64,000 nt of DNA from NCBI RefSeq assembly GCF_002005145.1, contig NZ_CP019698.1, forward strand, positions 2,542,001 to 2,606,000, in the 5' to 3' direction. Position 1 is the stretch's first letter. Each line of letters opens with the position of its first letter. The notes under the pieces are model-generated. The model was given only the letters and a program-made list of their open reading frames with translations. It did not search any database and was not told where the DNA came from. The translations under genes and the position numbers were made by a program. Shown in pieces: positions 15,685 to 26,073 of this stretch. Origin of the DNA: Desulforamulus ferrireducens. GTDB lineage: Bacteria; Bacillota; Desulfotomaculia; Desulfotomaculales; Desulfotomaculaceae.

Positions 15685-16080
15685 TTGGATAAAATTATTT
15701 TTCCCCAAGGATTGCCAGGTTTTGAAAACCTAAGTGAGTTTAGTATCTCTCCATTGCCCGAAACACCCTTTTATTATTTAGAATCCCTGGAAGATGAAAA
15801 TATTTGTTTTTTACTGGTAAACCCCTTTGATTTTTCTCGCTCTTATGAATTTGAAATACCGGCCCCGGTAGAAGAACTGCTGCAAATTAAAGAACTAAAT
15901 GAGGTAACTGTATTTACCATTGTCAATACCAGCCAGGGCCTGGAAAAGGCCACAGTGAATCTTCAAGCACCGATCATTATCAATGTTACCAATGGGAGGG
16001 GCATGCAGGTGGTGTTAAATGACCCCTCCTATAAAATCCGGGAACCTTTACATAGTCTAGTGCAGGGGGCGGTAAAATAA
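15685..16080 (+). CDS. fliW: FliW, flagellar assembly factor and CsrA antagonist
   Basis: FliW binds either flagellin or CsrA; when free of flagellin it removes CsrA from the hag transcript, so translation follows export. The 131-residue product has '[20 protein letters not shown]' (about 4-23), '[20 protein letters not shown]' and 'VINITNGRG-like' '[18 protein letters not shown]', all typical of FliW. The TTG start at 15685 follows AAGGAGG. Its stop overlaps the csrA start (TAATG), giving coupled production of antagonist and target. It is on the plus strand, divergent from fliS. Confidence 0.96.
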
Positions 16081-16319
16081 TGCTTATTCTTTCCAGGAAA
16101 AAGAACGAATCCATACGTATTGGCGACGATATCGTGATTACCATTGTGGATATTGCCGGTGAAAACATTAAATTAGGTATAGATGCCCCCAGACATATTC
16201 AGATTTTCCGCAGTGAATTAATAAAAGAAATACAAAGGGAAAATCAACAAGCTGCTACATCTAAAACTGACTTAAAAAACCTCTCTAAATTCATCCTCTC
16301 CCCCGAAAAAAACACCTAA
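16080..16319 (+). CDS. csrA: CsrA, translational regulator (copy 1)
   Basis: CsrA is a small dimeric RNA-binding protein that blocks ribosome access at GGA sites. The 79-residue product has the canonical start '[20 protein letters not shown]', then '[20 protein letters not shown]' and '[13 protein letters not shown]', with Leu4, Arg6 and the C-terminal Arg of the RNA-binding face present. The first codon overlaps the fliW stop. A second csrA lies at 24524-24697 next to the flagellin gene. Confidence 0.97.
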
Positions 16320-19926: not shown

Positions 19927-20802
19927 CTACCACAATATATAATCGTTGTCAGCTTGTTTCAGCAGCCACAGGACACTTTTCGCCTGCTGATTGGCCTGAA
20001 CAAACATGGCCATGGCCACCTGCTGGAGAATGCTGTACTTTACCAGTTCCATTATTTCTCTGGCCATGTCCGCGTCCCTGATCCGGGATTCAGCGGCAAT
20101 GAGGTTTTCTGCGGTGGTGTCCAGGTTATTAATGGTGTGCTCCAGGCGGTTGATGTAAGCACCTATCCTGCCCCTCTCGCTGGAAACGTCCGCCAGGGCC
20201 TGATCCACCACGGCCATGTTGTCATCATAGGAGTTAGTCAGTATATTAATGCCACTCAGGGCAAAATCAGGGTTTGCGCCGGACCCCAACAGGTCGGGAT
20301 TCATATTGCTAAATTGTATATACATTCCCTGCCCGGCATTGGCTCCCAACTGAAGCCAAAGCCCATTGCCCGTCCCGGCGTCACAGCTGCCGTCCAGTAG
20401 TTTCCTGGTGTTAAATTCCGTCCCGCTGACTATTCCTCCAATTCCCTCAATTAGCTGGTCAATTTCTTGCTGAATAGTCCTGCGGTCAGCATCGCTTAAT
20501 GTACCGTTGTGCCCCTGTATCACCAGTTCCCTGATGCGCTGAATCATAGCGTGGGTCTCGTTTAAAGCACCCTCGGCGGTTTGCAGCAAGGAAATACCAT
20601 CCTGAGCATTACGACTGGCCTGCTGCAAGCCCCTGATTTGGGCTCGCATCCTCTCGCTGATGGCCAGTCCGGCAGGATCGTCCGCAGCCCGGTTTATTCT
20701 GAGGCCCGAAGAAAGCCTTTCTATAGCTCTGGCGACCATGTTGCCGGCTCTGGTCATGTTTCTGTAAGCGGTCAGGGCGGCAATATTGTGGTTGATGATC
20801 AT
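19927..20802 (-). CDS. Second, short flagellin with an extra C-terminal tail
   Basis: Flagellins form the filament. The 291-residue product has the full D0/D1 N-terminus ('[20 protein letters not shown]', '[20 protein letters not shown]', '[20 protein letters not shown]') and C-terminal D1/D0 ('ESRIRDADMAREIMELVKYS'). Compared with the main flagellin (565 residues) it lacks nearly all of the outer domain. Instead of ending in 'QNILQLLR' it ends 'SVLWLLKQADNDYILW', about nine residues longer and with aromatic residues in a region normally buried in the filament core and bound by FliS. Its base composition looks more GC-rich than the surrounding DNA. A minor, junction or cell-surface flagellin is possible. 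Confidence 0.9.
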   Translation of the reverse strand: MIINHNIAALTAYRNMTRAGNMVARAIERLSSGLRINRAADDPAGLAISERMRAQIRGLQQASRNAQDGISLLQTAEGALNETHAMIQRIRELVIQGHNGTLSDADRRTIQQEIDQLIEGIGGIVSGTEFNTRKLLDGSCDAGTGNGLWLQLGANAGQGMYIQFSNMNPDLLGSGANPDFALSGINILTNSYDDNMAVVDQALADVSSERGRIGAYINRLEHTINNLDTTAENLIAAESRIRDADMAREIMELVKYSILQQVAMAMFVQANQQAKSVLWLLKQADNDYILW

Positions 20803-22704: not shown

Positions 22705-24402
22705 CTAACGGAGCAGTTGCAGTATGTTTTGGGGTTGCTGGTTGGCTTGAGCCAGCATGGCCTGAGCGGCTTGGGAGAGGATGTTCTGTTTGGTGAACTC
22801 CATCATTTCCTTGGCCATATCTACGTCGCGGATACGGGACTCAGCAGCGGTCAGGTTTTCACTGGAGGTTCCCAGGTTGTTGATGGTGTGTTCTAAGCGG
22901 TTTTGGAAAGCACCAAGGTTAGAGCGTTGGGCTGATACTTTTTCAATGGCATTGTTAATTACGGTAACAGCAGCAGCTGCACTTGTATGGGAAGTAACGT
23001 CAAGGGCTGCTTCTACCGCAGTGTTGTTGGTACCATTGGTTACGTTATATGTTGATGTAAAGTTGCCAGTACCTGCTTTACCAGATAATCCCAGAGCAGC
23101 AGCTCTCATGTCACCAATATTAATTGTCATACTTTGACCTTGGTTGGCACCAACCTGGAAGGTAGCAGTAAACTCTTGTTTTCTTCCTCCATCAGTAAAG
23201 GAGATACTATTACCATTGGTTCCAGCCTGCTTAGCTTCGATTACGAGATCATTAGCAGTGGTTCCTTGTTTAAGAGTAACATTAGTTAATTTGCCGGCAG
23301 TTTGGGCTATTAAATCGGCAACAATATCAGCTCCACTTTTGGCGTTGTGGATATCTACACCGATACCGATTCCTTCGTAATTGCCTTTACTTCCGTCATA
23401 GAATTCAATTACTTGGTTATCAATGGTAAAGCCTTTACCAACTAAGGCTGCAGCATCTGCTGCATTAGCAATGCTTGCAAAGCTGATATTTCCAGTTTTT
23501 GCTTTGGCACCGGCAACCATATTACCTGGGGTTACTACACCTTCGGTACCAACAGCAGCATCAGAATATGTGGTTGCTGCAATTGTTCCGGCTAAACCAT
23601 CAGCAGCACTACCTGCAATTGCGGAAATTGTCAACTGGTCGCCAGTTGCAGTTACCTGGTAATCACTGCCAATACCAAGTTTAGTTAAAGCACTATTTAG
23701 TGCATTAGCCAGTGCAGTAGCAGCAGCATTGGCATCAGCAAATGTACCGGCTTTTGTTCCAAGAGTAATTGTTTGACCATCGGCGCCAACAGTAGTAGTA
23801 TCCACAGATTTATCTAGAGTTACTGTAATTGTTTTACCACCGATATTATACGTTGCAGTTCCAGCAACATCATCAATATCTGCAATGGTATCAGTAACTT
23901 TAACTTGGGATAAACTGTCCGCTGTACCACCGGTTAGTGTACCTGCTGTAATCAAGTTTGTTGCTGTTACGTTAGCTGAACCATCTCCACCTTTTAATAA
24001 CTTCTGGGTGTTGAACTCGGTGGTGTTACCAATACGGTTAATTTCCGAGGTTAGCTGGTTAATTTCCTTCTGGATTTCATCACGGTCAACGGTTACGTTG
24101 GTGTCGTTGGCTGCTTGGACAGCCAGTTCACGCATACGTTGTAGGATGGCGTGGGTTTCGTTTAAACCACCTTCAGCGGTTTGAATCATGGAAATACCAT
24201 CTTGGGCGTTACGGGCAGCTTGGTCCAGACCACGGATTTGAGCGCGCATTTTTTCGGAGATAGCCAGACCAGCAGCATCGTCACCGGCACGGTTAATACG
24301 GAGACCTGAGGATAGTTTCTCTAAGGATTTTTGAGTGTTAGTATTGTTAAAGCTTAACTGACGATATGTGTTTAACGCAGCAATATTATGGTTAATTCTC
24401 AT
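22705..24402 (-). CDS. hag: Main flagellin (Hag/FliC)
   Basis: This is the main filament subunit. The 565-residue product has the conserved N-terminal D0/D1 ('[20 protein letters not shown]', '[20 protein letters not shown]', '[20 protein letters not shown]') and C-terminal D1/D0 ('[20 protein letters not shown]', ending '[11 protein letters not shown]'). About 300 residues in the middle form an Ala/Thr/Gly/Asp-rich outer domain with little conservation, making it about twice the size of minimal flagellins. Its mRNA leader carries an unusual hairpin between the ribosome site and the ATG (see 24409-24446). csrA2 lies 121 nt upstream in the same direction, and fliB is downstream. Confidence 0.97.
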
Positions 24403-24408
24403 TTATGC

Positions 24409-24446
24409 CCCTGTTACCTGCTCCGATAACAGGGTTACACCTCCTT
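24409..24446 (-). promoter_or_regulatory. hag leader: hairpin between Shine-Dalgarno and ATG, with CsrA-type sites
   Basis: On the minus strand a strong AAGGAGG (24446-24440) lies 37 nt from the hag ATG. Between them CCCTGTTA and TAACAGGG form a perfect 8-bp hairpin (24434-24409) with a 10-nt loop TCGGAGCAGG containing GGA. If the hairpin folds, the effective spacing from AAGGAGG to ATG drops to 11 nt. The ribosome site reads ACAAGGAGGT, an exact match to the CsrA consensus ACANGGANGT. A second weak ribosome site, AGGGG, lies in the 3' arm. This looks like a CsrA-controlled leader; see findings. Confidence 0.7.
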
Positions 24447-24523
24447 GTTAATTTAAAATTACGGCAGTTTGCCGCTGGGGAGAGGTTGACTTCCGTTCCA
24501 ACTCTCCCGCTTTTAGATCACTA

Positions 24524-24697
24524 CTATGCCCCTTGGGCTTGTCCCGGCATTTCCAGCAATTCCGAACGCACAATATCCACGCCATGGGGGGCCTGGATAC
24601 CGATTTTGACGGTGTTGCCGATTACCTCCAGGACCACTACTTTGATTTCTTTGTTAATAACTACCGATTGACTTTCTTTGCGTGTAAGTACCAGCAT
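24524..24697 (-). CDS. csrA: CsrA, translational regulator (copy 2)
   Basis: This second CsrA has 57 residues: 'MLVLTRKESQSVVINKEIKV', 'VVLEVIGNTVKIGIQAPHGV' and 'DIVRSELLEMPGQAQGA'. The RNA-binding residues (Leu4, Arg6 and the Arg in 'VRSE') are present. It has a shorter tail than copy 1. ATG at 24697 follows AAAGGAG; the reading frame continues upstream to 24829 but that part is untranslated leader. It lies immediately upstream of hag in the same direction, so regulator and target probably share a transcript. No fliW adjoins it. Confidence 0.95.
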   Translation of the reverse strand: MLVLTRKESQSVVINKEIKVVVLEVIGNTVKIGIQAPHGVDIVRSELLEMPGQAQGA

Positions 24698-24764: not shown

Positions 24765-24849
24765 TTGACCAACCAGCAGAATTGCTGCATTTTGATGTTA
24801 ACGTTGGTGTGCCTTTGTGTTTGCTTCATTTTGAAGCACCTAATTATAT

Positions 24850-24876
24850 AGTCGGTGGGTGGGGGGCTGGACTTTA
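24850..24876 (-). promoter_or_regulatory. SigD-type promoter of csrA2-hag
   Basis: The minus strand reads TAAA (24876-24873), 16 nt, ACCGACT (24856-24850), followed by ATATAAT. This is close to the SigD pattern TAAA-N15-GCCGATAA. A SigA-like TATAAT overlaps but has no matching -35. It would place the transcript start about 145 nt upstream of csrA2, leaving a long leader. Confidence 0.5.
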
Positions 24877-25613: not shown

Positions 25614-25946
25614 CTACAACTGCCAAATCAAAAATTCGGCAGTGAGACCTGGCTGACCTCCTTTATATCCGGGTATACCTACTTGGAAAGTAGCCGAGAA
25701 ACCAGTGCCAGCACCAGCGCCAGCGGCACCAGTTACGCCACCATCTAAAGTAATAGTTTCATTTAAACCGGTAGCTCCTGTAATATCACCGGTAAAGGCT
25801 ACAGTAAGGGCTGATGGCGCTGCGTCACCAGTAGCATTATCAATTAGGTTTTGAATAGCGGTAGCATCATATGTGTCACCGTCTACAAGTGATATTGTCA
25901 ATGTATCACCGGCCCAAACTGCTCCTGCTGCTGTATCTTCAGTGAA
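25614..25946 (-). pseudogene. Relic of a flagellin outer domain
   Basis: The minus strand from TTC 25946 to the stop at 25614 reads as the variable part of a flagellin: 'DTLTISLVDGDTYDATAIQN', 'LIDNATGDAAPSALTVAFTG', then 'GFSATFQVGIPGYKGGQPGL'. 'ATFQVG' is also where the main flagellin re-enters its conserved domain ('[14 protein letters not shown]'). The conserved N- and C-terminal D0/D1 parts are missing and a stop codon stands just upstream. It is either a decayed flagellin gene or a silent cassette. Confidence 0.7.
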
Positions 25947-26073
25947 TTATGGTTTTCGGTAGTAACAGTTGGGAGTTTAGGTGTTGCTTCATATCGTAGC
26001 TAGAATAATGCCTCGCATCCTAAAACGAGCTTTATCGAGTTTTGGATTATCTAAAACTACCTGGATTTAGGCA

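What the first reader, a model, noticed from the sequence alone, without database searches (positions are those of the whole stretch)
24403..24446. Flagellin mRNA leader: strong ribosome site held 37 nt from the start codon by a hairpin with a GGA loop
Sequence: AAGGAGG at 24446-24440 and ATG at 24402 on the minus strand are 37 nt apart, far more than a working ribosome site allows. A perfect 8-bp stem, CCCTGTTA/TAACAGGG, with a 10-nt loop containing GGA, fills the gap and, if folded, leaves 11 nt. The ribosome site is ACAAGGAGGT, exactly the CsrA consensus. Known: CsrA represses hag in Bacillus via a hairpin site and a site over the ribosome site, and FliW relieves it. Inference: here the hairpin may both bridge the ribosome site to the start and serve as a CsrA site, so folding would switch translation on and CsrA off. 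A weak AGGGG inside the 3' arm gives a competing model in which the hairpin blocks it. A ten-codon frame from CTG to the TAA just before ATG is a third option.
Basis: partly seen in the sequence, partly recalled or inferred. Interest (0 to 1): 0.78.

Follow-up and report, generated by a model that had tools for sequence, protein, structure and literature searches.

The report
Hairpin-bridged ribosome site before flagellin
The strong ribosome landing site of this bacterium's main flagellin gene lies 37 bases from the start codon, too far to work directly, and a stable hairpin, found in altered form in one other genus, probably folds the gap away; this trick is proven in a phage but scarcely described for normal bacterial genes.

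Summary
AAGGAGG (24446-24440) and the hag ATG (24402) are 37 nt apart, with a perfect 8-bp stem between them (10 bp with U.G and C-G; insert z = -4.8). The stem occurs once in the genome. Of about 90 flagellin leaders read across the 113 held genomes of the order, one other has its strong site equally far away: Desulforadius tongensis, with a 51-nt gap. That gap also folds. Its basal stem CCC(A)UGU/ACA(A)GGG matches the window's, and folding leaves 8-10 nt (window: 11 nt).

Best reading: a split ribosome-binding site like T4 gene 25 (27 to 11 nt), set in an otherwise normal CsrA-type hag leader. The hairpin as a CsrA site is not supported. Its loop (UCGGAG) lacks the ANGGAN core, and the likely hairpin CsrA site is upstream (24508-24478, loop AACGGAAG), covarying in relatives. 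The second CsrA site is the ribosome site itself.

The main rival is a short upstream frame (CTG here, ATG in Desulforadius) ending TAA|ATG, with coupled re-initiation. Only two sequences carry the feature, and nothing has been tested at the bench.

The parts
24849..24876 (-). sigma28-like promoter TAAA-N16-ACCGACTA upstream of csrA2; hag is probably transcribed as csrA2-hag
   Evidence: consensus match only
24524..24697 (-). csrA2, short CsrA of 57 aa directly upstream of hag, without the C-terminal extension of CsrA1
   Evidence: Pfam CsrA 2.5e-20; alignment
24478..24508 (-). upstream CsrA-type hairpin (site 1), GGGAGAGTTGG-AACGGAAG-TCAACCTCTCCC
   Evidence: fold; covarying stem in six related leaders; such hairpins in 48 of 77 leaders of the order against 6% in shuffles
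24461..24475 (-). small hairpin GCGGCA-AAC-TGCCGT of unknown role
   Evidence: fold
24439..24448 (-). ACAAGGAGGT: SD (AAGGAGG 24446-24440) and likely CsrA site 2
   Evidence: 16S 3' end CACCTCCTTTCT; duplex -15.1 kcal/mol; unpaired in the predicted fold
24409..24434 (-). bridging hairpin CCCTGTTA-TCGGAGCAGG-TAACAGGG
   Evidence: z -4.8 for the insert; unique in the genome; matching basal stem in Desulforadius
24408..24412 (-). weak proximal SD-like AGGGG, inside and next to the 3' arm
   Evidence: -5.7 kcal/mol; paired except its last base
24403..24432 (-). possible upstream frame CTG TTA TCG GAG CAG GTA ACA GGG GCA TAA, stop abutting the hag ATG
   Evidence: sequence; counterpart with ATG start in Desulforadius
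22705..24402 (-). hag, intact flagellin of 565 aa
   Evidence: Flagellin_N 8.9e-51 and Flagellin_C 6.2e-31
15685..16080 (+). fliW
   Evidence: Pfam FliW 1.2e-37
16080..16319 (+). csrA1, full-length CsrA of 79 aa
   Evidence: Pfam CsrA 3.8e-24; has the C-terminal extension

Best explanation
[quoted passage not shown] The 30S subunit pairs with AAGGAGGTG, which stays single-stranded. The 26-nt hairpin between it and the ATG stays folded and is carried on the ribosome, which shortens the path from 37 nt to about 11 nt or less and puts the hag ATG in the P site. This sits inside an ordinary CsrA-type flagellin leader: CsrA would bind the upstream hairpin (loop AACGGAAG) and the ribosome site and block the 30S, with FliW relieving it. 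Shown by computation: geometry, stability, uniqueness, a second example in another genus, and the place and covariation of the upstream CsrA-type hairpin. Inferred: use of the hairpin by the ribosome, CsrA binding, and relief by FliW.
For: Insert z -4.8; P(hairpin) 0.99 with the SD mostly open. Leaving the insert folded while SD and hag start are opened costs 0.2 kcal/mol, while opening the upstream-frame start costs 17.4. Desulforadius has the same parts with a 51-nt insert whose stem has the same base, CCC..UGU/ACA..GGG, and leaves 8-10 nt; with the SD held open the basal pair has P 0.998. All 113 held genomes scanned: only these two have this arrangement; other flagellin leaders have the SD close by. 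hag is intact, so it is presumably translated. Precedent with experimental support: T4 genes 25 (27 to 11 nt) and 38 (22 to 5 nt) (PMC3014915).
Against: Two examples only. The shared basal stem is identical, so it shows no covariation, and the upper stems cannot be aligned with certainty. Homology of the two inserts is only suggestive (6 of 2000 mononucleotide shuffles as good; 45 of 2000 without the final TAA). A short residual spacing also arises in 39-51% of shuffled inserts, so stability rather than spacing carries the weight. In the unconstrained Desulforadius leader a fold hiding the SD is 0.5 kcal/mol better. The relative with the same csrA2-hag order (G006) has no insert and a spacing of 8 nt.
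Confidence: 0.57

Rival explanations
1. Leader peptide with coupled re-initiation: the strong SD serves a short frame that starts at CTG 24432 (7 nt away), melts the hairpin while being translated, ends at TAA 24405-24403, and the terminating ribosome restarts at the abutting hag ATG, perhaps helped by the exposed AGGGG.
For: In Desulforadius the same SD is followed at 6 nt by ATG in a 14-codon frame that also ends TAA|ATG, with AAGGG near the end. Upstream frames and coupled translation are common in bacteria.
Against: In the window the start is CTG, a poor start codon (general knowledge), while the stem is perfect. The CTG lies in the stem, and opening the footprint costs 17.4 kcal/mol here and 10.7 in Desulforadius. 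The two peptides show no evident likeness. A stop directly before a flagellin start is not rare in these leaders.
Confidence: 0.22
2. Repressive hairpin: hag is translated from the weak proximal AGGGG, which the hairpin hides; some factor or temperature opens it. The upstream AAGGAGG only serves as a CsrA site or a standby site for the ribosome.
For: AGGGG sits 5 nt from the ATG and is paired in the predicted fold. Hairpins hiding ribosome sites are the commonest kind of leader control (general knowledge).
Against: AGGGG gains only -5.7 kcal/mol against a stem of about -17. It would leave the best possible SD, conserved in position relative to the upstream CsrA hairpin, unused by the ribosome.
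Confidence: 0.1
3. Third CsrA site: the hairpin presents GGA to CsrA, and its main role is CsrA binding rather than bridging.
For: GGA lies in the loop; the Desulforadius loop holds AGGGAG, which fits ANGGAN.
Against: The loop here is UCGGAG or GGAGCA, which does not fit ANGGAN, and a proper CsrA-type hairpin already exists upstream with covariation.
Confidence: 0.05
4. Recent damage or drift: an insertion separated the SD from the start, and hag is now poorly translated.
For: The closest csrA2-hag relative (G006) lacks the insert, and the genome has a second flagellin (19927-20802).
Against: The gene is intact over 565 codons, and Desulforadius has a like arrangement.
Confidence: 0.06

Closest known systems
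Split (accommodated) ribosome-binding sites of phage T4 genes 25 and 38 (PMC3014915, citing Nivinskas 1999 and Malys and Nivinskas 2009)
   Same: Strong SD too far from the start; a hairpin between them brings it to a working distance (27 to 11 nt and 22 to 5 nt; here 37 to 11 nt, Desulforadius 51 to 8-10 nt)
   Different: Here in a chromosomal flagellin gene of a Gram-positive-type bacterium, with a longer gap, and with the SD also a likely CsrA site; not tested by experiment
CsrA/FliW-controlled hag leader of Bacillus subtilis (PMC7652899, citing Yakhnin 2007 and Mukherjee 2011)
   Same: Two CsrA-type sites, one of them on the SD; fliW and csrA in the flagellar region
   Different: Extra hairpin between SD and ATG; a short csrA2 directly before hag in addition to full-length csrA1
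E. coli thrS split ribosome-binding site (PMC3936740, citing Sacerdot)
   Same: The ribosome accommodates a long hairpin without unfolding it
   Different: From general knowledge, the thrS hairpin lies upstream of the SD, between it and a second contact region, not between SD and ATG

Membership tests
T4 gene 25-type split ribosome-binding site | Strong SD at a distance too long to work, and no good proximal SD | tested here: met
   37 nt; distal -15.1 against proximal -5.7 kcal/mol
T4 gene 25-type split ribosome-binding site | Stable hairpin in between that leaves a working distance | tested here: met
   z -4.8, P 0.99, 11 nt left or fewer
T4 gene 25-type split ribosome-binding site | Structure kept in relatives | tested here: inconclusive
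   one relative with a matching basal stem and like residual spacing; no covariation in that stem; absent from other species of the genus
T4 gene 25-type split ribosome-binding site | Breaking the stem lowers translation | not testable with these tools
   needs reporter fusions
CsrA/FliW-controlled flagellin leader | Hairpin with an A-N-GGA loop upstream of the SD | tested here: met
   AACGGAAG at 24497-24490; stem covaries in six leaders
CsrA/FliW-controlled flagellin leader | Second site over the SD | tested here: met
   ACAAGGAGGT at 24448-24439, by sequence only
CsrA/FliW-controlled flagellin leader | csrA and fliW present | tested here: met
   Pfam matches
CsrA/FliW-controlled flagellin leader | CsrA binds and represses, FliW relieves | not testable with these tools
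   needs binding and expression assays
Hairpin between SD and ATG as a CsrA site | ANGGAN in the loop | tested here: not met
   UCGGAG; no A.GGA in the insert
Leader-peptide coupled translation | Upstream frame with a good start codon at the right distance from the SD, stop next to the main start | tested here: inconclusive
   CTG at 7 nt and TAA|ATG here; ATG at 6 nt and TAA|ATG in Desulforadius

The most novel reading that the evidence does not exclude
The hairpin is a two-way switch read by the ribosome. Folded, it sends a 30S docked on the single strong SD to the hag ATG; unfolded, it sends the same 30S to the upstream frame. CsrA on the upstream hairpin helps choose, which would give a CsrA-tuned choice of start site from one SD. 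The nearly equal SD-hidden and SD-open folds in Desulforadius (-29.9 and -29.4 kcal/mol) would be part of it.
Probability: 0.1. Interest if true: 0.8.

Novelty: new variant of a known kind. Interest (0 to 1): 0.52.

Why it matters
Ribosome sites bridged by a hairpin are proven for two phage T4 genes; no chromosomal example with the hairpin between SD and ATG turned up in the papers searched here. A flagellin gene would be a demanding case because its protein is made in large amounts, and here the same SD is also the likely site of a well-understood repressor. If true, gene finders and spacing-based expression models misjudge such genes, and the two leaders offer a simple test of whether bacteria use the trick for normal, regulated genes.

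Tried and rejected
Intrinsic terminator: no run of T after the stem; rejected by sequence. Repeat element: the stem occurs once in the genome. Wrong start codon: TAA directly before the ATG blocks any in-frame upstream start, and [12 protein letters not shown] aligns with the relatives. Known RNA family: no Rfam match in the window other than tRNAs. More members: the class scan gave only the window and Desulforadius; in the phylum sample (gap 17-47 nt) the four other hits (L224, L226, L227, L228) all show a second SD-like run close to the start; nothing in viral contigs. The flagellin tree has too little support to say whether the two inserts share one origin. Alignment of the inserts is suggestive only. 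Residual spacing alone was tested and is not beyond chance.

Full report
What is there. On the minus strand the intact flagellin gene hag (22705-24402; Flagellin_N and Flagellin_C) is preceded by ACAAGGAGGT and then TGTAA-CCCTGTTATCGGAGCAGGTAACAGGG-GCATAA-ATG (in this notation the T of TGTAA is the last T of ACAAGGAGGT). The Shine-Dalgarno (SD) to ATG distance is 37 nt. The 16S 3' end of this genome reads CACCTCCTTTCT, so the SD pairs at -15.1 kcal/mol, against -5.7 for the only proximal match, AGGGG. The insert folds at -17.6 kcal/mol, z -4.8 against dinucleotide shuffles. In the leader the hairpin has P 0.99, the SD is about 85% open (its last G less so) and the hag ATG about half open. The stem is unique in the 3.24 Mb genome. 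In 864 kb with 817 ORFs no other distal-only AAGGAGG has a comparable bridging stem.

Surroundings. hag lies directly behind csrA2, a 57-aa CsrA without the C-terminal extension seen in CsrA1; in B. subtilis FliW binds that extension (PMC7652899). The nearest sigma28-like promoter is upstream of csrA2 at 24876-24849, so hag is probably on a csrA2-hag mRNA (inference). fliW and a full-length csrA1 lie at 15685-16319. Between csrA2 and the SD is a strong hairpin (24508-24478) with loop AACGGAAG. Flagellin leaders of the order have such a hairpin with an A-N-GGA core upstream of the SD in 48 of 77 cases, against 6% in shuffles. Among six leaders of the window's type its stem covaries clearly (93% of cells paired, 8 cells with double changes, no shuffle as good). 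This is the likely hairpin CsrA site and the SD the second one; B. subtilis hag likewise has two CsrA sites, one over the SD (PMC7652899). The SD-ATG hairpin is therefore an addition to a complete CsrA-type leader, and its loop (UCGGAG) does not fit the CsrA core.

Comparison. I read about 90 flagellin leaders from the 113 held genomes of the order. Most have an SD 5-12 nt from the start; some divergent flagellins have only weak matches. A pattern scan of those 113 genomes for AAGGAGG with 28-58 nt before a flagellin start found only the window and G048. In a 398-genome phylum sample (gap 17-47 nt) the window alone lacks an SD-like run close to the start. The G048 contig has the same length (109,980) as a named contig of Desulforadius tongensis DSM 29799 that carries a csrA2 relative. 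Its leader has the same parts: short csrA2, upstream loop AACGGAGG, ACAAGGAGGTG, a 51-nt gap and ATG. Those 51 nt fold into CCC-A-UGU-U-CUGGA...UCCAG-UU-ACA-A-GGG (z -2.3, p 0.025). The base of this stem, CCC..UGU/ACA..GGG, equals the base of the window's stem; the A.A mismatch in between is missing from both arms of the window. The upper stems differ in sequence and length. Folded spacing is 8-10 nt there and 11 nt here. When the SD is held open, the basal pair of the Desulforadius bridge has P 0.998. Without that condition a fold hiding the SD is 0.5 kcal/mol better, so that leader may be a switch.

Mechanism. The split-site reading needs almost no unfolding: opening the SD and the hag start with the insert left to fold costs 0.2 kcal/mol here and nothing in Desulforadius, while opening the upstream start costs 17.4 and 10.7 kcal/mol. 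The precedent is strong: T4 gene 25 goes from 27 to 11 nt and gene 38 from 22 to 5 nt, with mutational and chemical support (PMC3014915). Against it stand the small number of examples, the lack of covariation in the basal stem, the absence of the insert in the relative with the same gene order (G006, spacing 8 nt), and the fact that shuffled inserts often leave a short residual too (39-51%).

The main rival is a leader peptide. In Desulforadius the SD is followed at 6 nt by ATG in a 14-codon frame ending TAA|ATG; here the matching start is CTG. Coupled re-initiation could work in both, and in Desulforadius it is a serious option. In the window the CTG start and the cost of melting make it second choice.

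What is known and what is new. CsrA control of hag is known; a split site is known for phage T4; thrS of E. coli shows that a ribosome can carry a hairpin (PMC3936740). The combination in a chromosomal flagellin leader, in two genera with differing inserts and similar folded spacing, was not found in the papers searched. That library is open-access only, so other work may be missed. I rate it a new variant of a known kind, with no bench evidence yet.

Noticed in passing
25614-25979 (-): A 95-codon frame with flagellin-like text (GFSATFQVG) behind a sigma28-like promoter (25979-25953): it looks like the remnant of another flagellin gene upstream of csrA2.
   Followed up: partly
24524-24697 (-): Short csrA2 of 57 aa directly before hag, without the FliW-binding extension and probably co-transcribed with hag; among the leaders read, seen only here, in G006 and in Desulforadius. 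It may be a FliW-blind CsrA.
   Followed up: partly
L229 (G048:C5:3300-6700), about 110 nt before hag: The Desulforadius hag leader has two nearly equal folds: one hides the SD by pairing it with the CsrA hairpin region, the other frees the SD and forms the bridge (-29.9 and -29.4 kcal/mol).
   Followed up: partly
19927-20802 (-): Second flagellin gene (291 aa) with an SD-like run AAAAGGGG at normal spacing and no such leader.
   Followed up: no
G000:C1 near 223996 (+), in L246: AAGGAGGAACCTCCGGGAGGTGTTTTAATATG: two SD-like runs, the second in a small hairpin, before a 311-aa ORF.
   Followed up: no
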